DNA from: Pontiella desulfatans
GTDB taxonomy: Bacteria > Verrucomicrobiota > Kiritimatiellia > Kiritimatiellales > Pontiellaceae
Length of the DNA: 64,000 nucleotides
Direction: 5' to 3'
NCBI RefSeq assembly: GCF_900890425.1
Contig: NZ_CAAHFG010000004.1
Span: forward strand, 490,798-554,797
Shown: one piece after another, positions 43,231-59,550 of the stretch
How the letters are laid out: every line of letters begins with the position of its first letter
Position numbering within the stretch: position 1 is the first letter of the stretch
Program-made: the position numbers and the translations under genes
Notes under the pieces: model-generated
What the model saw: only the letters and a program-made list of their open reading frames with translations
Databases searched by the model: none
Told to the model about the DNA's origin: nothing

Positions 43231-43308
43231 GGTGATTGTAGCTCAGTTGGTTAGAGCGCGTGATTGTGGTTCATGAGGCCGCGGGTTCGAATCCCGTCTT
43301 TCACCCCA
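43231..43308 (+). tRNA. tRNA-His (GTG)
   Basis: The D-arm AGCTCAGTTGGTTAGAGC, the anticodon arm CGTGA-TTGTGGT-TCATG (anticodon GTG) and the T-arm GCGGG-TTCGAAT-CCCGT are seen, with CCA encoded. An extra 5' G at 43231 suits tRNA-His. The acceptor pairing GTGATTG/CTTTCAC has two U-U mismatches. The 3' part is the island's attachment site. Confidence 0.88.
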
Positions 43309-43312
43309 ATTT
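43290..43312 (+). other. left attachment site (attL)
   Basis: This 23-bp sequence covers the T-arm 3' strand, the acceptor 3' strand and CCAATTT. It is identical to 59528-59550. Confidence 0.88.
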
Positions 43313-43408: not shown

Positions 43409-45217
43409 GTGGTCATAATGCAGAAAGTCCCGAATTTAACCAATCCTTCTGAAGGCAAGTACAAGTACAGGAAGGTTGTTCCCGATGACGTGCAGGCGTA
43501 CATCGGGCAAACGGAATGGAAGTTTACCCTTGATACGGATGATGAAAATCATGCGGTAGCTTGGGGAAAAGGACTCAATAAAAAATACGGTAAGGAAGTT
43601 CGTGAAGCACGGCAGGCTATCAGGAAAGAATCTTCAACTGGTGTGCCTGCTTCAAAGAAACCCACTTCCAAACCATTTGACCTGTCCAGTATTGAGTCAG
43701 AGATCCATCAATTGTCCGAAAATCTGGAATGTAAAAAGAACGCTGATCTAAACACTTTGCACCTCCAGCTTGGAAATATCGGGCATAGTATGCAATACGC
43801 TGTTGAGAAGGATTTAAGTGAACAGGCTTTGGCAGGAGTTGATTTGTGTCCTGTTTCTCAGCAAACGCTACTGGAGCTATGCACACATGTGGCACAGGTT
43901 GAAAACCTAGCCGATGGTGACCTGCGACGAAAAACCGCTCGTTTTGTTATTCACAAACTCCAGCCTCTGCTGGAAGAGATGGAGGACAGCATTCCCCCGC
44001 TGATGGGAAAACCTGTGCCAGTTCGGACAACACATAAATTGATTGATGGGCGTTGGGAGGATGTTCCGGTTGAAAAGCCTGCTGTTGCGACGACTCCATC
44101 AACTAATGCCCATGGTGAAAAAATACCTACACTTTCCGAGGCTCTTGAAAAGCACATAGCGTTCAAGGACGGGGATGTTAAAGATGGCACCGCCGAAACT
44201 AAAAGGGCTGGTGTTGCTCTGTTTATTGAGTGGGCGGGTGATAGACCTGTTTCCGATTATTCTCCCGATGAATTGGTTGATTACCGAAATAACTGCCTTA
44301 GGAAGTACCCGAAAAACCGCCAGCAGTCTCCAAAGTTTGACGGGAAGAGTTTGGCAGAAGCGCTAAAGATTGGTGCCAATGATAAACACATCGGGCAATC
44401 TAGAATTAACACCTTAATAAGCAACGTCAGCTCAGTTTTTAATTTTTCCGTACAGAGAAGGTGGATAACTCTCAACCCTGCATCTGGACTGAAAGAGACT
44501 AAGCCGAATGTATTGAGCGAAGAGGATGACAAAGCATTTGAACAGCATGAATTAGAAAAGTTGTTTGAGATCCTTCCATACAAAGAGAGTAAGCCGTCTT
44601 GGTATTGGTCTGTCATAATCTCCCTTTACAATGGTTGCCGACAATCAGAGATCTGTCAGCTATTCGTTGATGACATTATAACTTATCAGGAACTCCCTTG
44701 TTTCAAATTAACCGAGGAGGGGGAGGTCGGTGCAGATAAGAGCCTTAAAAATCGTCAATCGTGCCGAATCGTGCCTATTAATCCTAAGTTGATAGAAATA
44801 GGGTTTATGCGATTTGTGGAAAATCGGCGAAGGGAACTCAATGGCAAAAATGATTTGTTGTTTTCCAATGTTCGTCGCACGGCAAATGGAAAATATAACA
44901 AGAGTCTCAGTGACTGGTTTAACCAGCGATTCAAGCATAAGTTTATAGATAAAAAGATTCAGGCTGTTCGCAGGCGTACATTCCACGGGTTGAGGCATAG
45001 CTTCGCCCATTATTCACAAAATAATGCGAGGATGGACTTTCAGGTTCGCCATGAATTAATGGGACATGAACTCAAAGGCTATAACCCTGTGAATGCTGAT
45101 TATACGGGAAAACTACCAATGGCACGGTTGCTGGAGGATCTTGTGAAAATGGACTTTGGAGACTATGATTTAACAATCCCTGCCAATCCGTTCATGAAAA
45201 AAAAGGCGACCAAATGA
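43409..45217 (+). CDS. tyrosine integrase of the island
   Basis: This 602-residue site-specific recombinase has an N-terminal part beginning KVPNLTNPSEGKYKYRK that resembles arm-binding/DUF6538 regions of phage-like integrases. A SAM-like core-binding domain (about 270-370) and the catalytic domain follow. Catalytic residues are Arg near 411 in NGCRQSEICQL, HGLRHSF near 527, His in RHELMGHE near 550, and Tyr in NADYTGKL near 564. The GTG start at 43409 lies 8 bases after GGAGG; an ATG three codons on is the alternative. Its position next to tRNA-His and its inward direction make it the enzyme that integrated the island. Confidence 0.92.
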   Translation: MVIMQKVPNLTNPSEGKYKYRKVVPDDVQAYIGQTEWKFTLDTDDENHAVAWGKGLNKKYGKEVREARQAIRKESSTGVPASKKPTSKPFDLSSIESEIHQLSENLECKKNADLNTLHLQLGNIGHSMQYAVEKDLSEQALAGVDLCPVSQQTLLELCTHVAQVENLADGDLRRKTARFVIHKLQPLLEEMEDSIPPLMGKPVPVRTTHKLIDGRWEDVPVEKPAVATTPSTNAHGEKIPTLSEALEKHIAFKDGDVKDGTAETKRAGVALFIEWAGDRPVSDYSPDELVDYRNNCLRKYPKNRQQSPKFDGKSLAEALKIGANDKHIGQSRINTLISNVSSVFNFSVQRRWITLNPASGLKETKPNVLSEEDDKAFEQHELEKLFEILPYKESKPSWYWSVIISLYNGCRQSEICQLFVDDIITYQELPCFKLTEEGEVGADKSLKNRQSCRIVPINPKLIEIGFMRFVENRRRELNGKNDLLFSNVRRTANGKYNKSLSDWFNQRFKHKFIDKKIQAVRRRTFHGLRHSFAHYSQNNARMDFQVRHELMGHELKGYNPVNADYTGKLPMARLLEDLVKMDFGDYDLTIPANPFMKKKATK

Positions 45218-46232: not shown

Positions 46233-49200
46233 TTGTCTGATATTAATAAAGTAGTTTGCATAAGAGATTTGCGGTCATCAATGGATAATAAAACGCCAAT
46301 ATCAGTTCTGAAGCTTGGGGTGAAAGCTCACAGGGCTTTGCACCGTCTTCACATCAAGAGTATCGGTGAGTTTATCGACCTAGATATGAAGGATGTTTTG
46401 CGATTAGATGGTGTCGGCAAAAAAACTGTGGTCTGCTTAGGAGTTTGGCAGAAAAAAGTAGCGTCCATTCTAGGTTCAGGGGTCGTCGATGAGGCGGTGT
46501 CCGATGCTGATTGGAAGTTTTATCAGGAATGCCTTTCGGAGGTGAGTCAAAATCGTCTGACATCTTTAGGGATTTGCTCTCTAGAAAAATTCTTTGCCTT
46601 AAGTAAGTACACATTTTTAGGACGTCAGGATGTTGGTGCAATCTACTGGGAGGAAGTCGATTATCTTCAGGAAGTACTTAGCGGCGGATTTGAATATAGT
46701 TATGATATAGGTTGTGAACCGAATGAAGAGGAACGTTCTGAGAAACATGGACTAGAGCATGAGTGGCGACTTGCGTATGCATCCTTTTCTGTGCGGACAA
46801 AAAATGGTTTAGATCGTCTATCGGTTACATCGCCCAAGCCTTTTCTGAAGTTGACTAAGGATGTTTTTTTAGGTCAGCGAGGTGTAGGAAAGAAATGCTG
46901 GAAAGAGATTGAGGGCGTTCAGAAAAAACTATTCCCCCTCCTTTCCTCGGGAGAGGTGTCACTATGGGAGCCAGACCCATATTTATTAAGTGATTATCCT
47001 TTATATAGTGGGCTTGATCTCAACGTCACTTCCTTGCCAGACGAGTTCTATCCCGATGCTCCAGTGACGTCATTTGTGACAAATGTAAGGGCTAAAAAAG
47101 CACTGGCTAATCTTGGGGTAAAAACATTAGGTGAATTATTGCTGGTTCGCTCCAACGTTTTTTTTGGCTTGAAAAATTGCGGTAAAAATACAGTTCGTGA
47201 ACTGCGAAAAAATGTTGAGGAATTTTTAGAGTATCGCCGCAACCCTGAAACAAATATTTCCATGGGAGAGAGTATAAGCGACCTCATAAAGCAAATGTGC
47301 TTGGAGGTAGGAATGTCTGTCAGAGATGCTGATATTTCTTCGTGTCGAATTTGTCATGGGCGAACTTTAGAATCGGTTGCTCACGATTATGGGTGCACTA
47401 GAGAGCGCATCCGTCAAGTTGTAGCAAAATCAACCGACTTGGTAGAAACGTGTTTCAAAACTCGCATCGCATTAGACTATGTTGGAGAGGCGATGGCTGA
47501 TGTTGTTAATTCCAATCGGGGCATTATTGAGATGCATGCGCTCGGCACTTTATTGGCTGAAAAACTGAACTGGAATACCCCTGTAGATGAAGGAGGGGTA
47601 AAAGAATTGATTCGGAATTTTCCTTCAATGAAAGCCCGATTTGCTTTTGAGGGAGATGTTGTTTTTCGTCCGCATCAATGCCGAGATTGTGACGAGATAA
47701 CTCAGTTGTTCAAAAGGCTTGTCCGTGACTCGGAGGATAAACCTTTTACCTTGAATGCAGAAGCTCTTGAGGAACTACAAGAGATATGTCGGAAAAGAAC
47801 TTTTTTTGGTTGTGAGTTTGCTGACTTGCCATTTTCATCAGGGTATGTTGATGAGCTATGTGAACGTAGTGGCTACAGAAAAGACGGTGACACTGTTTGG
47901 TCTGATGAGGCTCATGCTCTTGCCAGGGGTGGGTTGATGAGGAAAGCTGAAGCATTGCTCCAGATGTATGGGGGTGCTTGCTCAATCACCGAACTTTGGT
48001 CTTCTATTGAAGCTTTGTCTGATACAACAATTCTAAAACTGAGACAGGTTTTGTCAAATTCTAACCAGTGTTTCCGCTGGGGGAAAGATGAGTTTATTCA
48101 CAAGGATTTCATCAAAGTTCGGGATGATATTTTGTCGATTATTGGGAATGAGATTAATCAACGCCTGAAGGAAAACTCAATCACCAGTGTAATCGGAATA
48201 TTTAAAGAATATCAATTCACTTTCTCTGATGCAGGTGTGCCAAATGAGTATGCTTTGGCGTCTGTTGTTGCAAATTTATTTAGTGATACATGTTATGTAG
48301 ACAAGTTTCGGTATATTCACTCTGAGCGACCTAGTGATGGGCGAAGCTCGATTACTTATTATGTTCAGCAGTGGGTATTGGATCAAGACGGAGCGGTTCG
48401 TTCTGACGAGATTAAAAACCAGCTTGTGAATGGTTTTGGAATGAGAGAAGCAACAGTGCCCAGTTGTTTTAGCCGCCTCGATGAGGTGATCCCATTGGGA
48501 GAGGATAAGTTTATTCATGTCGATAATCTGGGGCTAAATAAGAGTGACTTACAATCGTGTGCGGACTTGATAGAATTAACCCTTCAGTCTCATAAGCAAA
48601 TTGGTGTTCATCGCTTGTTTAAGAAGAAGGAGATCGTTTGCTTTGAACTTGGCATTGAATCTCCCAACATGCTCCATGCGCTGATTCAACATTTTTTTTC
48701 TGATCAATATGAATGTCGCAGGTTCCCTCATATTTCTAGGCAGGGAAGAAGTGCAATGTCATTAAACGAGACTATCGAAAGATATCTTATAGAGAGGAAT
48801 GGTGTTGTTTCTGTCGATGACTGTTCAGATCACTTCGAGAGTGTTGGGTATAATGCCGCACAAATGAAGGCACGTTTGCCTCAAACAGCTAACGTATTTG
48901 TTTATTACCCCCGGTGTTTGATTCACTCAAGCGTACTTGGATGGAGCGAGAACAAAAGTAGGGAAATCTTTAAGGTTCTGGAAGCATCGTATGAGCAAAG
49001 TCTCCGTGCTGGTGGATTCGTTGGTGATCTACAGGATGTTTTTGATCTTATGGAGGATGATCTTCCTGAATTAGAAAATGGATATGGGTGGACTGCTGAT
49101 TTGCTAGCCTCAATTGCCGGGAAAATTGATGGAGTTCAGATTTTAGGTAATGCAAAGAGGGCATTCACGATAAAGGGCTCAAAGGGAGAATTAGCCAAAC

Positions 49201-49394
49201 TAGGCGATTTGGTTTCATCTGTAGTTAAGAATGTTTTTAATGGTGGCTGTAGCCGTGATCAACTTTCTGAGTGGATGCGGGAGCATGGAGTTGTCAGAAA
49301 GAAACTCTCTTTATCCATGTTTCAGCCAAAAGATGGACTAATTATGAGTGAATATGAGTGTTATCTTGAATCAGGCGAGGTCGTAAATGGGTGA
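46233..49394 (+). CDS. large regulator-like protein with alpha-CTD-like HhH repeats and a sigma-region-4-like HTH
   Basis: This 1053-residue protein has at least two clear copies of an RNA-polymerase-alpha-CTD-like helix-hairpin-helix: residues 22-66 (SVLKLGVKAHRALHRLHIKS, LDGVGKKTV) and 278-333 (VRAKKALANLGVKTLGELL, LKNCGKNTVREL). Two more are degenerate, near 103-150 and 187-237. At 377-397 RTLESVAHDYGCTRERIRQV matches the sigma-70 region 4 helix-turn-helix. The C-terminal half holds two related segments with IHSERPSDGRSS..DGAVRSDEI and HISRQGRSAMSL..NGVVSVDDC, probably winged-helix-like. It starts at TTG 46233 (AAGGG adjacent) or ATG 46281. It overlaps the PLD gene by 8 bp. It is likely a DNA-binding component of a defence or regulatory system; this is inference from domains and context. 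Confidence 0.75.
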   Translation: MSDINKVVCIRDLRSSMDNKTPISVLKLGVKAHRALHRLHIKSIGEFIDLDMKDVLRLDGVGKKTVVCLGVWQKKVASILGSGVVDEAVSDADWKFYQECLSEVSQNRLTSLGICSLEKFFALSKYTFLGRQDVGAIYWEEVDYLQEVLSGGFEYSYDIGCEPNEEERSEKHGLEHEWRLAYASFSVRTKNGLDRLSVTSPKPFLKLTKDVFLGQRGVGKKCWKEIEGVQKKLFPLLSSGEVSLWEPDPYLLSDYPLYSGLDLNVTSLPDEFYPDAPVTSFVTNVRAKKALANLGVKTLGELLLVRSNVFFGLKNCGKNTVRELRKNVEEFLEYRRNPETNISMGESISDLIKQMCLEVGMSVRDADISSCRICHGRTLESVAHDYGCTRERIRQVVAKSTDLVETCFKTRIALDYVGEAMADVVNSNRGIIEMHALGTLLAEKLNWNTPVDEGGVKELIRNFPSMKARFAFEGDVVFRPHQCRDCDEITQLFKRLVRDSEDKPFTLNAEALEELQEICRKRTFFGCEFADLPFSSGYVDELCERSGYRKDGDTVWSDEAHALARGGLMRKAEALLQMYGGACSITELWSSIEALSDTTILKLRQVLSNSNQCFRWGKDEFIHKDFIKVRDDILSIIGNEINQRLKENSITSVIGIFKEYQFTFSDAGVPNEYALASVVANLFSDTCYVDKFRYIHSERPSDGRSSITYYVQQWVLDQDGAVRSDEIKNQLVNGFGMREATVPSCFSRLDEVIPLGEDKFIHVDNLGLNKSDLQSCADLIELTLQSHKQIGVHRLFKKKEIVCFELGIESPNMLHALIQHFFSDQYECRRFPHISRQGRSAMSLNETIERYLIERNGVVSVDDCSDHFESVGYNAAQMKARLPQTANVFVYYPRCLIHSSVLGWSENKSREIFKVLEASYEQSLRAGGFVGDLQDVFDLMEDDLPELENGYGWTADLLASIAGKIDGVQILGNAKRAFTIKGSKGELAKLGDLVSSVVKNVFNGGCSRDQLSEWMREHGVVRKKLSLSMFQPKDGLIMSEYECYLESGEVVNG

Positions 49395-50145
49395 TCTTCA
49401 ATCTCTCTCGCTGGAAGCTGTATATGACAGTTCAGAGTACCACTTAGTGCGGGACTTGATGGTTCCATTGTTGGCACAGTCCAAGTTGTATTGCCGTGGT
49501 GTCGGGTACTTTTCTAGCGGATGGTTAAGAATAGCTTCAGAAGGGCTTGAGGAGCTTATCTCCTCTGGAGGACGTGCCCGGTTAATTATGTCGCCCATTC
49601 TTGATGAAAAGGATTGGCAAGCAATTGAACTCGGGCAACAAGCTCGTGAAAATGAGATGCTCAAAAAGTGTCTTCACTCATCCGTGGATGAAATTTCTTC
49701 ATCGCTCGAATCTAACACCTTGAATACGTTTGCTTGGTTAATCGCTGATGAGCTGTTGGATGTTCGGTTCGCAGTCCCACGGGCGGGTTTTCGTGGTGGG
49801 GATTACCATGATAAAGTAGGATATTTTGCGGATGAGTCAGATAATTATGTAGCCATTCATGGGTCATATAATGACTCAATCAAGGGAACACTTAATGGAG
49901 AGGCGTTTTCTGTCTTTCGATCTTGGTATGAGGGGCAACTCCCGTTTTTGGACAAGCATGTTGCTCGGTTAAACCAGCTATGGGATGATGAAAACGCTCA
50001 GTTTCACACCTTTAAATTGCCCGATGCGGTAAGGCAACAAATAGTCCAGCTACGATCAACGGATTATAGACCGTACACTACATTATCTGGCGGAAAAATA
50101 ATGCGGATTCTGCTAAGGAATGGAGAAAGCTATATCACCGCATAG
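49387..50145 (+). CDS. PLD-like N-terminal domain of a helicase-type defence protein, truncated
   Basis: This 252-residue protein matches the phospholipase-D-like module usually found at the N-terminus of large PLD-SNF2/DEAD helicases. Landmarks are YDSSEYHLVRDLMVPLLAQS, GVGYFSSGWLRIASEGLEEL, and the HKD-like HDKVGYFADESDNYVAIHGS then GEAFSVFRSW. In complete proteins a helicase follows directly after the RPY segment. Here the frame after TDYRPYTTLS changes to a few unrelated residues and stops, and no helicase motifs follow. The gene has therefore probably lost about 600 codons. It is translationally coupled to the 1053-residue gene (GTAAATGGGTGA overlap), so the two were one functional unit. 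Confidence 0.75.
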   Translation: MGDLQSLSLEAVYDSSEYHLVRDLMVPLLAQSKLYCRGVGYFSSGWLRIASEGLEELISSGGRARLIMSPILDEKDWQAIELGQQARENEMLKKCLHSSVDEISSSLESNTLNTFAWLIADELLDVRFAVPRAGFRGGDYHDKVGYFADESDNYVAIHGSYNDSIKGTLNGEAFSVFRSWYEGQLPFLDKHVARLNQLWDDENAQFHTFKLPDAVRQQIVQLRSTDYRPYTTLSGGKIMRILLRNGESYITA

Positions 50146-50318
50146 GCTCCAATCAGAAACAACGTCTACTGGAAGTATTGTCTGAGGGGAAAATTAAAGA
50201 GCATCATTGTGCTTCTGAAACTGGCTTGCTCACTCCAATGCTGAAGTCGATTGAGTTGGCTTTGTTCTGTGTTTTGGAAAATGGCGAGGTACGAGCTACA
50301 TATCCAGAGGGTACATGA
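50088..50318 (+). pseudogene. remnant frame after the truncated PLD gene
   Basis: From 50088 a different frame reads WRKNNADSAKEWRKLYHRIG, then KQRLLEVLSEGKIKEHH, then a stop at 50316-50318. It has no start codon near its beginning and continues through the PLD gene's stop. It is protein-like in composition and helical, and probably belongs to the lost gene's 3' end or to a second gene fused by deletion. Confidence 0.5.
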
Positions 50319-50340
50319 ATGATTTTTTGTGGATGGCCGT

Positions 50341-50952
50341 ATGACCGACATAATCAATACGCTGAATCCGATTATCACCCCCGAATTGTTCGGGAGGATA
50401 CTTGAGGGCTACCCTCTAGATCCTCTGGGTATCCATGGGATTTACCACTGGCTGAAGGTTGCCGAGAATGCCCGTCATCTTGCCAAGGAGGAAGGAATCC
50501 AAAGCGATGTATTTCCCCTGTTTGCCGTATTCCATGATTCCCGCCGCCTCAATGATGGCCGTGATCCCGATCATGGGAAGCGTGGGGCCTCTTTCGCCAG
50601 AGAACTGCATGGAACGTGGTTCACTCTTCCCGAAGCTGATCTGGAGCGATTATGTTACGCCTGTGAGCACCATACTGACGTGGTACGTCACAAAGATCCA
50701 GTGATCGGGATCTGTTGGGATGCTGATAGAATGGATTTGCACAGAGTCGGGATCATGCCTGACGTAAAATACCTGAATAGCAAGACCGCTAAATCCGAAT
50801 ACTACGGTGCCAAATTTAAGTATGAACAACCCTGTCCCAGATGTGGACGGGATACAGAACTATTCTCAGGCATCTGCGCTGAATGCCGTGTGGAGATGGA
50901 AATCCAGTTATCGGAAACCAATATCGGATGGAAGACCGACATCTTTGATTAA
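50341..50952 (+). CDS. HD-domain protein with C-terminal zinc ribbon
   Basis: This 203-residue protein begins MTDIINTLNPIITPELFGR. The HD superfamily metal ligands appear in order: HGIYHWLKV, FHDSRRLNDG, CEHHTDVV and CWDADRMDLHR. It ends with a CPRCGR..CAEC zinc-ribbon-like pair near residues 175-192. HD proteins hydrolyse phosphate esters of nucleotides such as (p)ppGpp, dNTPs or cyclic nucleotides, or act on RNA. Here the LNDGRDPDHG insert after HDSRR resembles the uncharacterised HD proteins found in defence loci. A GTG at 50329 is an alternative start. It follows the broken PLD gene by 22 bp. Confidence 0.78.
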   Translation: MTDIINTLNPIITPELFGRILEGYPLDPLGIHGIYHWLKVAENARHLAKEEGIQSDVFPLFAVFHDSRRLNDGRDPDHGKRGASFARELHGTWFTLPEADLERLCYACEHHTDVVRHKDPVIGICWDADRMDLHRVGIMPDVKYLNSKTAKSEYYGAKFKYEQPCPRCGRDTELFSGICAECRVEMEIQLSETNIGWKTDIFD

Positions 50953-53359: not shown

Positions 53360-54211
53360 ATGAAGAAATATATAGTTCTAATTTCGCTTTTGGTATTACT
53401 CCCTCTTTTATGCACTGCTGGTACAGAGCGATTGAACTATCAGGGCAAATTGGCTCATGGTAACTCTCCTGTTACGGGAACTATTCCTATGATCTTCCAA
53501 ATCTTCGATGGACAGTCTGGAACAAACGTCCTCTATGAAGAATCCATGAGTGTTGATGTCGTGGATGGATATTATTCAATTGAGCTTGGTGAATATCCGA
53601 ATTTTGGGCAATTGGTCAGTGCCATTAAGCGTCAAGATGCTCATATTCAAGTGACTGTTAATGGGAAGAAATTGAAGCCTAGAGAGAAGGTTGGGAAACC
53701 GCCTTTTGCTGAGAAAAGCAAAGAAACTATTCATGATTTCTATATGAACAACAATGTGTTTCCCAAGTCGTACTGGGATAATCAAATAGCGAATACCAAC
53801 TTCTTCGGCGGCTATTTTTACTCGGTGCATAATTATTCCCTGTATTTCTATAATTGTGAATCGCAACAACATTTTATGTTTGTATCTCCATCGGTGATGG
53901 AGAGGAAAACCGTCTCTCAGATAGGTATTTGGGCGAGAAATATAACAACTAATGTGCCAACAGATGTAGTCATCCAAGCTTATGCAAGAGGCTTTGATGA
54001 TGATCAAATAGAAAGAGTGTTGTCGGATCAAGTTAGATTAGATCAGATGATTCCGCTCGAATGGTTCTATTTGCCAGTTATCTCTCCAGAGAATAAGGCA
54101 TACATTAATTCAGATGAATACATCCATATAGAGCTTTCATTGCCAGAAGGACAAACTCAAACGAACAGATTTGATCTGACATGTATTCGTGCAAGCGTAG
54201 AATTGAAATAG
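53360..54211 (+). CDS. secreted protein with 'LNYQGKL' domain, copy 1
   Basis: This 283-residue protein has a signal peptide (MKKYIVLISLLVLLPLLCTAG), then ERLNYQGKLAHGNSPVTGTI and a beta-rich domain (FQIFDGQSGTNVLYEE, VDGYYSIELGEYPN) of a type common in secreted proteins of Kiritimatiellota-like and other bacteria. Residues 1-105 are close to identical to copy 2, including KKLKPREKVGKPPFAE; the C-terminal half is different. No function is known. It may bind other surface structures, with the variable half as the specific part. Confidence 0.72.
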   Translation: MKKYIVLISLLVLLPLLCTAGTERLNYQGKLAHGNSPVTGTIPMIFQIFDGQSGTNVLYEESMSVDVVDGYYSIELGEYPNFGQLVSAIKRQDAHIQVTVNGKKLKPREKVGKPPFAEKSKETIHDFYMNNNVFPKSYWDNQIANTNFFGGYFYSVHNYSLYFYNCESQQHFMFVSPSVMERKTVSQIGIWARNITTNVPTDVVIQAYARGFDDDQIERVLSDQVRLDQMIPLEWFYLPVISPENKAYINSDEYIHIELSLPEGQTQTNRFDLTCIRASVELK

Positions 54212-54232
54212 TACCAAGCATTAAAAATACAT

Positions 54233-54322
54233 ATGAACGAAATTTTCGATCCAACACAAATATCTGGTGTGTCACCAACTAACGGTGTTCGTTTTTATAG
54301 AGTGTCTGTCGAAATCAATTAA
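54233..54322 (+). pseudogene. 3' remnant of a second TSP3-type gene
   Basis: A 29-residue frame ends SGVSPTNGVRFYRVSVEIN, matching the end of the TSP3 protein (SGTTPTNSVRFYRVSVQKIY). It lies just before copy 2 of the LNYQGKL gene, in the same place relative to it as the full gene is to copy 1. It is thus the leftover of a tandem duplication of the two-gene unit. Confidence 0.75.
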
Positions 54323-54332
54323 GGAGTTCGAA

Positions 54333-55205
54333 ATGCAAAAACTACTTTTACTGGCGACTTTGGTCTTCCCTTTATTGTCCTACTCAGGAACTGAGCGGCT
54401 TAACTACCAAGGCAAACTTGCCCATGGGAATAACCCCGTAACGGGCAATGTCCCGATGACCTTCCAAATCTTCGATGGACAGAATGGTACCAATGTCCTT
54501 TATGAAGAATCCATGGATGTTGATGTCGTGGATGGTTACTACTCCATTGAACTTGGTGAGTATCCAAACCTTGGGCAGTTGGTAAGTGCCATAAAAAGAC
54601 AGGATGCCCACATACAAGTGACTGTTAATGGGAAAAAAATGAAGCCTAGAGAAAAAGTCGGTAAGCCACCTTTTGCAGAACACAGCGAGGAAACATGGAC
54701 AGAATTTAGTTTAGAGCAGTCGGTTGATGGAGATCCTATATTTGAGCAATGGATATCGTATCAAACGAATCCATTTATTGATACTGCGGACACTCACATG
54801 AAGTACTTGGGCGGATATCGACCAAGTGAGGGATCTGCAATGTCTTTTTATTTCAACCCAGTCACCGTTTCGAAAAAAGTTAGAGAGGTTAGAGTTTTAG
54901 CGTTAAAAAATAATACTGGGTATTACAATGACGTGAATCCTATTCTTCAAAATACAAAGCTAGAAGTAGTGGTGAGATCCCTAACGACAAACGAAAAGAC
55001 TCGATCTCTTTCAGAGCCTACTGATGTAAGCGAAATTATTTCAGGTGAATGGTTCAGCGTCCCGCTTACTAACAGCATAAAGGATTCTGTCGTAAATGCA
55101 GGAGAGTACCTCTGCATAGATGCATATTCCCCATACGTTGATAATGGAGTGTTTGAAAAAGGGTCTCATCTACAGGGAATCTTTATAAATGTCATTGTGT
55201 ATTGA
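54333..55205 (+). CDS. secreted protein with 'LNYQGKL' domain, copy 2
   Basis: This 290-residue protein has a signal peptide (MQKLLLLATLVFPLLSYSG) after AGGAG. The first part (ERLNYQGKLAHGNNPVTGNV, VDGYYSIELGEYPNLGQLVS) is nearly the same as copy 1. The rest (DTHMKYLGGYRPSEGSAMSF and on) shares little sequence with it, although both end with a similar beta pattern. The frame opens earlier at 54267, but those codons belong to the remnant. Confidence 0.72.
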   Translation: MQKLLLLATLVFPLLSYSGTERLNYQGKLAHGNNPVTGNVPMTFQIFDGQNGTNVLYEESMDVDVVDGYYSIELGEYPNLGQLVSAIKRQDAHIQVTVNGKKMKPREKVGKPPFAEHSEETWTEFSLEQSVDGDPIFEQWISYQTNPFIDTADTHMKYLGGYRPSEGSAMSFYFNPVTVSKKVREVRVLALKNNTGYYNDVNPILQNTKLEVVVRSLTTNEKTRSLSEPTDVSEIISGEWFSVPLTNSIKDSVVNAGEYLCIDAYSPYVDNGVFEKGSHLQGIFINVIVY

Positions 55206-55580: not shown

Positions 55581-57401
55581 ATGAGATTCAGGAACCTGAG
55601 AAAATGGGAAAATCCCAACCAATGTGAAGGATTGCTTTTTTTTGCTCAACGAATGGAGGAACTTCTATTCGACTATTCTTTGGATAGTTACAAACCCCCA
55701 GCCTTGAATTCTCTCTTTCTGTGTAAAGAAGCTCTTAGTCTCATTGAAGATATTGAGAACAGGATAATTGATCCTGAGAACCTTGTTCCTGTTCTAGAGG
55801 AACTCGATTGGAGTCTAAAGAACGACAGAGTCGCTAAATCGTTATTAGATGCAGAGCCTGAAAAATATATATTGCTGGATGAAGCGACTCAGCTAAAGGA
55901 TAAGAAGATTCGGCTCGAAGTTCTTGCTAGAACATTGGGTGTGCAAAGGTACGTGGATCGATGCTCTGAGCTTCTTGCGTTAGCTATTCAGGAAAAGAGC
56001 AAAATAGAAATATCTAAGCTGTCAACGCTGTTGACGACAACACTCCTTAACTGCGGTCTCAGCAAGCAGTATCTTTATACAAAAACACTCGATTACTTCT
56101 ATATTGGATCAACACCCAAGATAACTGGAAATGACAATATCAAAGAGTTCCTGGAGTCAATTTATCCAATCGGGCACGAATTTGAGGTATATTTCACCTG
56201 TTCAAGGTTGATCGCTGAAGTTAGAGATTCAATATCAGCATTTAACGTCATCATACTGGACGAACTTCCAGAGGACTTGCACGAGATATCTGATCAACAG
56301 GGGTTTAAGAAATCTGATGACGAAGTGTATGTCGAAGTAAGCGAAATTCAGTGTGCTGATGTGTTTACAGCCAGAGAGCTAGCAGAAAGACGATTAGACC
56401 AACTGCGAGATCTATTTACCCTCTTTAATCACAAAAATCAGATCTCATGGAATGAGAAAGCACTTATAAAGCAATGTTGCGTAGAAGGTCCCAAATGTGT
56501 TCTCCCGCCCAAGAGTGCTATGGAGAAAGGATTTGATATGAAGCCAGAAATGGCTTCGAGGGAATTGAATCGCTTGATTAAACAAGTATCTCTGTCAGAC
56601 AGCTCTTTAGAAAAATTCAATAGGGTTGTTGATTTCCACGGCATCGGGGTTACGAATGATGTGCCAGAAAACCAACTGCTTAATATTTGGATAGCTATTG
56701 AGACCTTGTTGCCTACTCACTCGGGAGGATCGAAGATCAATGTAATTAACGATCTCATGCGACCATTCCTGTCGGTAAATTACATTAGTAGATTGGTTGA
56801 GCGATTTGCGGCGGATCTCTTGTTATGGAATAAGTTTAAGACCCGATTCGTCTTGAGGAAAATACCAGACTCAAAAGGTATGACCGTTTACCAAAAGGTA
56901 CTTCGATTGCTCGCTCTAAATGAAAATGACGCTGTGTTGCAAGAGTTGTACGGGTCACTTCGAGATTTTCATTTGCTTAGGTTCAGAGCGTTCCAGTTGT
57001 CGGAAATGCTAAGAGATTTGGAAAAAATTCGTGCGCATATCGAACAACATCGAAAAAAGATTGCTTGGCAGGTTCGGCGAATTTACAGAACGAGAAATCT
57101 CATTGTTCACTCTGGGAAGAAGCCTAAGTACATCCTTTCTCTCATAGAAAATGGTCATGACTACCTTGATCAAACCCTCTTTGAGGTCATAAAAATGTCT
57201 ACGGGTAGTTATTGTGTGGAGACATTTGATCAGGCTTTTGAACTAGCACGGTTAAAGTATTCGATTTACTGGAAAAACCTAAACTCTATTGAATCATTCT
57301 CCTCCGACAACATTGATTTTCTTTTGCGAGAGTCTTGGGGTTTGGAGAGGTTGAGTAATAGTCGGTCAGCTGATAAAGCAACTGACGAGACTCAATGTTA
57401 A
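55581..57401 (+). CDS. HEPN-domain (Apea-like) protein
   Basis: This 606-residue protein starts MRFRNLRKWENPNQCEG. The N-terminal two-thirds is helical and matches no family I know. Its C-terminal part (about 460-560) is a HEPN domain: RNLIVH near residue 505 supplies the R-x4-H RNase motif within RRIYRTRNLIVHSG, preceded by an all-helical segment (RAFQLSEMLRDLEKIRAHIE). The earlier stretch NQLLNIWIAIETLLPTHSGG also fits the Apea_HEPN family. Apea-type HEPN proteins are found in defence islands and are thought to cleave RNA after phage sensing. It is flanked by promoter-like AT-rich DNA and a convergent resolvase, so it may act alone. Confidence 0.75.
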   Translation: MRFRNLRKWENPNQCEGLLFFAQRMEELLFDYSLDSYKPPALNSLFLCKEALSLIEDIENRIIDPENLVPVLEELDWSLKNDRVAKSLLDAEPEKYILLDEATQLKDKKIRLEVLARTLGVQRYVDRCSELLALAIQEKSKIEISKLSTLLTTTLLNCGLSKQYLYTKTLDYFYIGSTPKITGNDNIKEFLESIYPIGHEFEVYFTCSRLIAEVRDSISAFNVIILDELPEDLHEISDQQGFKKSDDEVYVEVSEIQCADVFTARELAERRLDQLRDLFTLFNHKNQISWNEKALIKQCCVEGPKCVLPPKSAMEKGFDMKPEMASRELNRLIKQVSLSDSSLEKFNRVVDFHGIGVTNDVPENQLLNIWIAIETLLPTHSGGSKINVINDLMRPFLSVNYISRLVERFAADLLLWNKFKTRFVLRKIPDSKGMTVYQKVLRLLALNENDAVLQELYGSLRDFHLLRFRAFQLSEMLRDLEKIRAHIEQHRKKIAWQVRRIYRTRNLIVHSGKKPKYILSLIENGHDYLDQTLFEVIKMSTGSYCVETFDQAFELARLKYSIYWKNLNSIESFSSDNIDFLLRESWGLERLSNSRSADKATDETQC

Positions 57402-59527: not shown

Positions 59528-59550
59528 AATCCCGTCTTTCACCCCAATTT
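59528..59550 (+). other. right attachment site (attR)
   Basis: This exact copy of the left 23-bp sequence ends CACCCCAATTT. It is followed at 59553 by what is probably the original terminator of the tRNA-His gene. Confidence 0.88.

What the first reader, a model, noticed from the sequence alone, without database searches (positions are those of the whole stretch)
46233..50318. Alpha-CTD/sigma-4-like 1053-residue protein coupled to a PLD-helicase fragment
One island protein combines two clear (and two weaker) helix-hairpin-helix units like the RNA polymerase alpha CTD with a sigma-region-4-like HTH and duplicated C-terminal wHTH-like segments. It overlaps a PLD module normally joined to a helicase. 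A protein imitating the DNA-contacting parts of RNA polymerase could mark or sense transcription starts and direct the helicase. I do not know a characterised system with this pairing. Domain calls are from motifs; the system role is inference.
Basis: partly seen in the sequence, partly recalled or inferred. Interest (0 to 1): 0.78.

Follow-up and report, generated by a model that had tools for sequence, protein, structure and literature searches.

The report
Promoter-mimic protein of broken phage-defence operon
A bacterial DNA island carries a large DNA-binding protein built from the promoter-reading parts of RNA polymerase; in related bacteria the same protein sits in front of an intact PbeABCD-type phage-defence operon, of which only a stump remains here.

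Summary
ORF 46233-49394 (1053 aa) carries four alpha-CTD-like units (three clear, one degenerate), a sigma-4-type HTH and a long array of alternating winged helices. The neighbouring PLD ORF is the first 232 residues of PbeA, the HKD nuclease-SF2 helicase of PbeABCD (CxC-ABC/DndE) defence systems. Full-length orthologues (22-23% identity) lie directly upstream of intact pbeA in all five closest relatives, followed by pbeC, pbeD and a B12-type radical-SAM gene. More divergent alpha-CTD/sigma-4 proteins adjoin pbeA in several other PbeA lineages, some with dndBCDE. The sigma -35-reading helix TRERxRQ is invariant in every relative aligned, while most of the rest is not. The window copy is broken: helicase, pbeB, pbeC, pbeD and the radical-SAM gene are gone, apparently by one internal deletion. 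Most likely mechanism (inferred): the protein is a DNA-binding specificity or sensor subunit that places PbeA on promoter-like DNA. Autoregulation and RNA-polymerase sensing remain rivals. The papers I could read do not describe this component or the radical-SAM association with PbeABCD. I class it as a new variant of a known kind.

The parts
46233..49394 (+). alpha-CTD/sigma-4/tandem-wHTH protein, 1053 aa, intact ORF, TTG start
   Evidence: full-length orthologues in L021-L024 and L136
46284..46472 (+). alpha-CTD-like unit 1 (residues 18-80), GVGKKTV loop kept, Lys at the R265 position
   Evidence: Pfam best stretch 18-66; Z 8.0-8.4 to solved alpha-CTDs
46500..46682 (+). alpha-CTD-like unit 2 (residues 90-150), degenerate DNA-contact loop
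   Evidence: helix pattern in the models; alignment
46746..46940 (+). alpha-CTD-like unit 3 (residues 172-236), VR...N and GVGKKCW kept
47043..47240 (+). alpha-CTD-like unit 4 (residues 271-336)
   Evidence: Z 9.2, rmsd 1.4 over 57 residues to 7vpd_S
47265..47462 (+). sigma-region-4-like HTH (residues 345-410)
   Evidence: Pfam Sigma70_r4 E 0.0033 here, above cut-off in relatives L022, L017, L020
47397..47417 (+). -35-reading recognition helix TRERIRQ (residues 389-395)
   Evidence: TRERxRQ shared by E. coli sigma70 and all 12 family members aligned; T389 R390 E391 R392 R394 Q395 invariant among the five orthologues in A2
47454..47678 (+). winged-helix-like unit w0 (residues 408-482)
   Evidence: DSSP of model
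47916..48122 (+). wHTH unit A1 (residues 562-630)
   Evidence: Z 9.4 to Zalpha 1j75_A; repeat of A2 and A3
48123..48338 (+). wHTH unit B1 (residues 631-702)
48339..48539 (+). wHTH unit A2 (residues 703-769)
48540..48755 (+). wHTH unit B2 (residues 770-841)
   Evidence: 95% profile match to B1
48756..48947 (+). wHTH unit A3 (residues 842-905)
   Evidence: 96% profile match to A2
48948..49382 (+). further wHTH-like units B3 and A4 (residues 906-1050)
   Evidence: secondary structure only; no profile match to the other units
49387..50082 (+). pbeA fragment: HKD/PLD nuclease part, codons 1-232; the ORF runs on out of homology to 50145
   Evidence: PADLOC PbeA E 5e-62; 52% identity to L021 PbeA 3-229
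50097..50318 (+). probable 3' remnant of the B12/radical-SAM gene, out of frame with pbeA
   Evidence: Smith-Waterman score 60 to L024 radical-SAM residues 399-432, 0 of 500 shuffles as good; no match to the other system proteins
43290..43312 (+). attL: tRNA-His 3' end, 23-bp direct repeat
59528..59550 (+). attR: second copy of the 23-bp repeat, so the island is about 16.2 kb
   Evidence: matches the low-GC stretch
43409..45217 (+). tyrosine integrase of the island
   Evidence: Pfam Phage_integrase E 4.7e-10

Best explanation
The 1053-aa protein is the DNA-binding accessory subunit of a PbeABCD-type (CxC ABC-ATPase/DndE/HKD-nuclease-helicase) defence operon. It is built from duplicated RNA-polymerase alpha-CTDs, a sigma region 4 and a winged-helix array. 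Shown: fold and motif content, orthology, conserved position and translational coupling in front of pbeA, and truncation of the operon in this window. Inferred: in intact relatives the sigma-4 helix and alpha-CTDs bind -35 and UP-element-like DNA, and the wHTH array adds contacts or docks partners. The protein would thereby place the PbeA nuclease-helicase (with PbeC-PbeD checking for self-modification) on promoter-bearing DNA that is unmodified or abnormally active. In the window the remaining protein could at most bind DNA or regulate; it has no helicase, ATPase or DndE partner left.
For: Orthologues directly upstream of intact pbeA in L021, L022, L023, L024 and L136, with start/stop overlaps of 1-20 nt in seven of eight pairs checked. 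PbeA of the window forms a fully supported group with these five. Divergent family members adjoin pbeA in other lineages, with dnd genes in Ruegeria, Pontibrevibacter, Rhizobium NXC14 and same-genus G001, and at least 6 changes of the label on the PbeA tree. In 80 PbeA-anchored loci the sigma motif occurs in 5 of 287 genes at positions -1 to +3 and 0 of 704 others. The -35 helix is invariant in a set otherwise about 23% identical. Multi-wHTH DNA-binding subunits are typical of such systems (DndG, BrxA; PMC10853773, PMC12839542), and PglW of BREX type 2 also joins an alpha-CTD to three wHTH domains (PMC12839542).
Against: No binding, interaction or phage data. Most PbeABCD systems lack the protein (75 of 80 loci), so it is not needed by the core. 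In L015, L096 and L128 the gene is downstream, so coupling to pbeA is not universal. A large HTH protein encoded first in an operon could be only a regulator. The sigma-4 fold was not recovered by structure search.
Confidence: 0.5

Rival explanations
1. It is a transcription regulator of the operon. It binds the operon's own promoter region through sigma-4, alpha-CTD and wHTH modules, keeping the toxic nuclease module off or switching it on during infection, without being part of the effector complex.
For: All modules are DNA-binding; the gene is first in the operon; same-phylum G194 carries a genuine sigma-70-type protein (MzaA-like) directly upstream of pbeA, and a sigma factor is a component of the MZA system (PMC9523054).
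Against: 1000 residues with four alpha-CTDs and seven or more wHTH units is far larger than typical autoregulators; the gene also occurs at the 3' end of the cluster (L015, L096, L128).
Confidence: 0.27
2. It binds host RNA polymerase (sigma-4 to the beta flap, alpha-CTD to activators or DNA) and senses phage takeover of transcription, then triggers PbeA.
For: Two different RNA-polymerase-derived module types in one protein.
Against: Only the DNA-reading helix of sigma-4 is invariant; the rest of region 4 is poorly conserved. No RNA-polymerase-binding element was tested.
Confidence: 0.15
3. Neutral relic: chance neighbour of a pbeA pseudogene, with no functional link.
For: The window system is broken.
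Against: Recurrent adjacency and coupling in intact relatives across several phyla.
Confidence: 0.08

Closest known systems
PbeABCD / CxC ABC-ATPase-DndE systems (PMC6459918, PMC10853773)
   Same: PbeA HKD nuclease-helicase, PbeB-like small protein, PbeC, PbeD in the same order in intact relatives; dnd modification genes beside some
   Different: An alpha-CTD/sigma-4/wHTH subunit is added and, in the window's clade, a B12-type radical-SAM gene; neither is mentioned for PbeABCD in the text of these papers. The window copy lacks the helicase and PbeB-D
PglW of BREX type 2 (PMC12839542)
   Same: alpha-CTD followed by several wHTH domains in a defence protein
   Different: No NERD nuclease, kinase or iSTAND matched here; four alpha-CTDs plus a sigma-4 HTH
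MzaA of the MZA system (NCBIfam NF041931; PMC9523054)
   Same: Sigma-derived DNA-binding protein encoded with a defence operon; MORC/HSP90-type ATPases are also found next to it (L021, L136)
   Different: Only the region-4 part matches (residues 328-400, E 3e-4); no sigma region 2; different partners
DndG, SspB and BrxA multi-wHTH subunits (PMC10853773, PMC12839542)
   Same: Several tandem winged helices in a non-enzymatic subunit of a restriction-like system
   Different: Those have three wHTH domains and are not described with alpha-CTD or sigma-4 parts

Membership tests
PbeABCD system (window copy) | PbeA with HKD nuclease and SF2 helicase | tested here: not met
   Only PbeA residues 3-233 present in the whole genome at this place; helicase absent
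PbeABCD system (window copy) | PbeC CxC ABC-ATPase | tested here: not met
   No match of the L021 PbeC in the window's genome; assembly 95% complete
PbeABCD system (relatives L021-L024, L136) | PbeA, PbeC and PbeD in one operon | tested here: met
   PADLOC PbeA 2.5e-222, PbeC 6e-163, PbeD 1e-4 in L021; profile matches in L022-L024 and L136 (L022-L024 gave the profiles their seeds)
PbeABCD system (relatives) | anti-phage activity | not testable with these tools
   needs experiments
RNA polymerase alpha subunit | N-terminal assembly domain | tested here: not met
   Only the CTD matches; the host has its own rpoA elsewhere
RNA polymerase alpha CTD fold | alpha-CTD fold and DNA-contact loop | tested here: met
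   Pfam 2.2e-15; Z up to 9.2; GKK loop kept in units 1 and 3, GKN in unit 4
Sigma-70 factor | region 2 plus region 4 | tested here: not met
   Only region 4 is matched at E up to 1
Sigma region 4 HTH | region 4.2 recognition helix and fold | tested here: inconclusive
   Recognition helix identical and Pfam above cut-off in relatives, below cut-off in the window protein; fold not recovered because alpha-CTD rows fill the structure lists
PglW (BREX type 2) | kinase and NERD nuclease domains | tested here: not met
   PADLOC/NCBIfam PglW matches only the alpha-CTD stretch; no kinase or nuclease domain in Pfam
MZA system | MzaA with MzaB-E | tested here: inconclusive
   MzaA matches only at residues 328-400; MzaB-E not matched among the island proteins scanned, which were not all of them

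The most novel reading that the evidence does not exclude
A restriction-like immune system that finds its target through promoter architecture instead of a fixed restriction site: a protein assembled from duplicated alpha-CTDs, a sigma-4 reader and a winged-helix array loads the PbeA nuclease-helicase on promoter-dense DNA, while self DNA is marked by an unknown B12/radical-SAM-dependent modification.
Probability: 0.22. Interest if true: 0.87.

Novelty: new variant of a known kind. Interest (0 to 1): 0.62.

Why it matters
How PbeABCD picks its target is unsettled: the original report saw replication block without DNA cleavage (PMC6459918), the reannotation argues for nuclease action (PMC10853773). 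A recurrent, translationally coupled subunit made of RNA-polymerase promoter-reading parts gives a direct, mutable handle on that question. The radical-SAM gene that travels with it, and elsewhere with DndB-like, MORC-type ATPase or DNA-methylase genes, points to a possible DNA modification chemistry that has not been described for these systems.

Tried and rejected
(1) Close homologues by single-sequence search in genome contigs, 97 relatives, plasmids, phages and viral contigs: none; relatives appeared only via the PbeA partner. (2) Phylum-wide search with the family alignment matches ordinary sigma factors almost everywhere (386 of 388 genomes); only full-length hits were used. (3) Reading 50100-50318 as the PbeA C-terminus: rejected, no similarity to PbeA C-termini. 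Its link to the radical-SAM tail is clear with L024 only (0 of 500 shuffles); family-profile tests were weak. (4) The radical-SAM gene as an exclusive PbeABCD partner: rejected; orthologues also occur without pbeA. (5) Viral contigs with the family alignment gave only short matches over the sigma-4 part. (6) The E. coli IncHI1A plasmid protein (L019) is related but its locus has no pbeA profile match. (7) Structure search for sigma-4: no usable match, lists filled by alpha-CTD rows. (8) The 2020 ABC-ATPase classification paper and all supplements were not readable, so earlier mention of this component there cannot be excluded.
Full report
What is there. The window holds an integrative island of about 16.2 kb at tRNA-His: tRNA 43232-43308, a 23-bp repeat of the tRNA 3' end at 43290 and 59528, an integrase at 43409-45217, and GC falling from about 0.60 to 0.42. 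Within it ORF 46233-49394 encodes 1053 aa and overlaps ORF 49387-50145 by 8 nt.

Domains of the 1053-aa protein. Pfam finds RNA_pol_A_CTD (E 2.2e-15, three stretches) and a sub-threshold Sigma70_r4 at 374-398. AlphaFold2 with four orthologues (pLDDT 68, pTM 0.33, so domain placement is unreliable) gives four alpha-CTD-like units followed by a winged-helix array; a second model of residues 15-426 gives the same four units. Residues 271-333 match solved alpha-CTDs at Z up to 9.2 and residues 18-81 at Z about 8. Unit A1 matches Zalpha wHTH at Z 9.4, and the array as a whole resembles SelB and UFL1 winged-helix tandems. Profile comparison shows alternating repeats, A1-A2-A3 and B1-B2. Against E. 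coli alpha-CTD, units 3 and 4 keep the Arg at the R265 position and units 1 and 3 keep the GKK loop; that these residues contact UP-element DNA is general knowledge of RNA polymerase. In the sigma-4 part TRERxRQ is identical to E. coli sigma70 in all 12 family members aligned. That this helix reads the -35 element is likewise established for sigma70.

The partner. The PLD ORF is PbeA residues 1-232 (PADLOC E 5e-62; 48-52% identity to L021-L024). PbeA is the HKD endonuclease-SF2 helicase of PbeABCD, PbeB a small protein, PbeC the CxC ABC-ATPase and PbeD a DndE relative (PMC6459918, PMC10853773).

Relatives. A scan of genome contigs with a PbeA alignment gave four loci with PbeA at 49-52% identity. 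All four, and G321 (L136) from the phylum search, have a full-length orthologue directly upstream of pbeA, then pbeC and pbeD. All five also carry a radical-SAM gene with a CxxxCxxC motif (B12-binding domain weakly matched in three of the four scanned), after pbeD or before the sigma-like gene. L021 and L136 add an HSP90/MORC-type ATPase, L136 a DndB/DpdB-like gene.

Wider association. Divergent alpha-CTD/sigma-4 or sigma-4-only proteins adjoin pbeA in Ruegeria, Pontibrevibacter, two Rhizobium plasmids, Arthrobacter, same-genus G001 (beside dndC), and downstream in Aurantiacibacter, L096 and L128. G194 has a genuine sigma-70-like protein there. In the 80 PbeA-anchored loci the sigma motif appears in 5 genes, all at positions -1 or +3 of pbeA, and in none of 704 more distant genes (Fisher p 0.002). 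Four of these five loci belong to one PbeA clade, so they are not independent. On the PbeA tree the trait needs at least 6 changes, so it was gained or lost repeatedly.

State in the window. PbeA homology stops at codon 232. The genome has no PbeC, no PbeA helicase part and no orthologue of the radical-SAM gene. The out-of-frame tail 50097-50318 resembles residues 399-432 of the L024 radical-SAM protein (score 60, 0 of 500 shuffles; the other system proteins do not). One internal deletion from pbeA into the radical-SAM gene explains this best; it would be about 5.3 kb if the gene order was that of L024.

Mechanism. Promoter-reading modules, an invariant -35 helix, coupling to pbeA and the precedent of multi-wHTH and alpha-CTD subunits in DndFGH and BREX (PMC10853773, PMC12839542) favour a DNA-binding specificity or sensor subunit that positions PbeA. 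Regulation of the operon and sensing of RNA polymerase are live rivals. None of the functional steps is shown.

Novelty. The text of the two PbeABCD papers mentions neither this subunit nor a radical-SAM partner, and targeted literature searches found no description. Supplements and the 2020 ABC-ATPase paper could not be read. I therefore rate it a new variant of a known kind.

Noticed in passing
L021:3965-5560, L022:8940-10379, L023:11726-13114, L024:14801-16180, L136:16008-17612; also L153-L159: B12-type radical-SAM family (52% identity L024 to L022/L023) in all five intact operons of this clade; elsewhere without pbeA, next to MORC/HSP90-type ATPase, DndB-like or D12 adenine methylase genes. 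It could be a DNA-modifying enzyme.
   Followed up: partly
L127:3148-4752 (G194): A genuine sigma-70-like protein (RpoS/MzaA-type, 535 aa) directly upstream of an 860-aa PbeA.
   Followed up: partly
L019:9209-11659: Related sigma-4-like protein (816 aa) on an E. coli IncHI1A plasmid, followed by an AAA ATPase and a DUF4145 gene, without pbeA; similar matches on Salmonella plasmids.
   Followed up: no
L163:6089-10259: Roseomonas plasmid: sigma-70-family gene directly upstream of a 1012-aa helicase-related gene in a Vsr/cytosine-methylase cluster, a similar pairing in another system.
   Followed up: no
L137:7534-11166 (G139): 1211-aa protein with several alpha-CTD units and a sigma-4 part (E 3.6e-31 to the family) without pbeA nearby.
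   Followed up: no
window 55581-57401: 606-aa island protein with a weak PADLOC ApeA match (E 2.5e-6), a possible second defence gene.
   Followed up: no
window 50329-50952: HD-domain protein (207 aa, Pfam HD E 4.7e-4) directly after the broken operon.
   Followed up: no
window 53360-55205: Two adjacent genes (283 and 312 aa) whose N-terminal parts are nearly alike (TERLNYQGKLAHGN...), a likely duplication.
   Followed up: no
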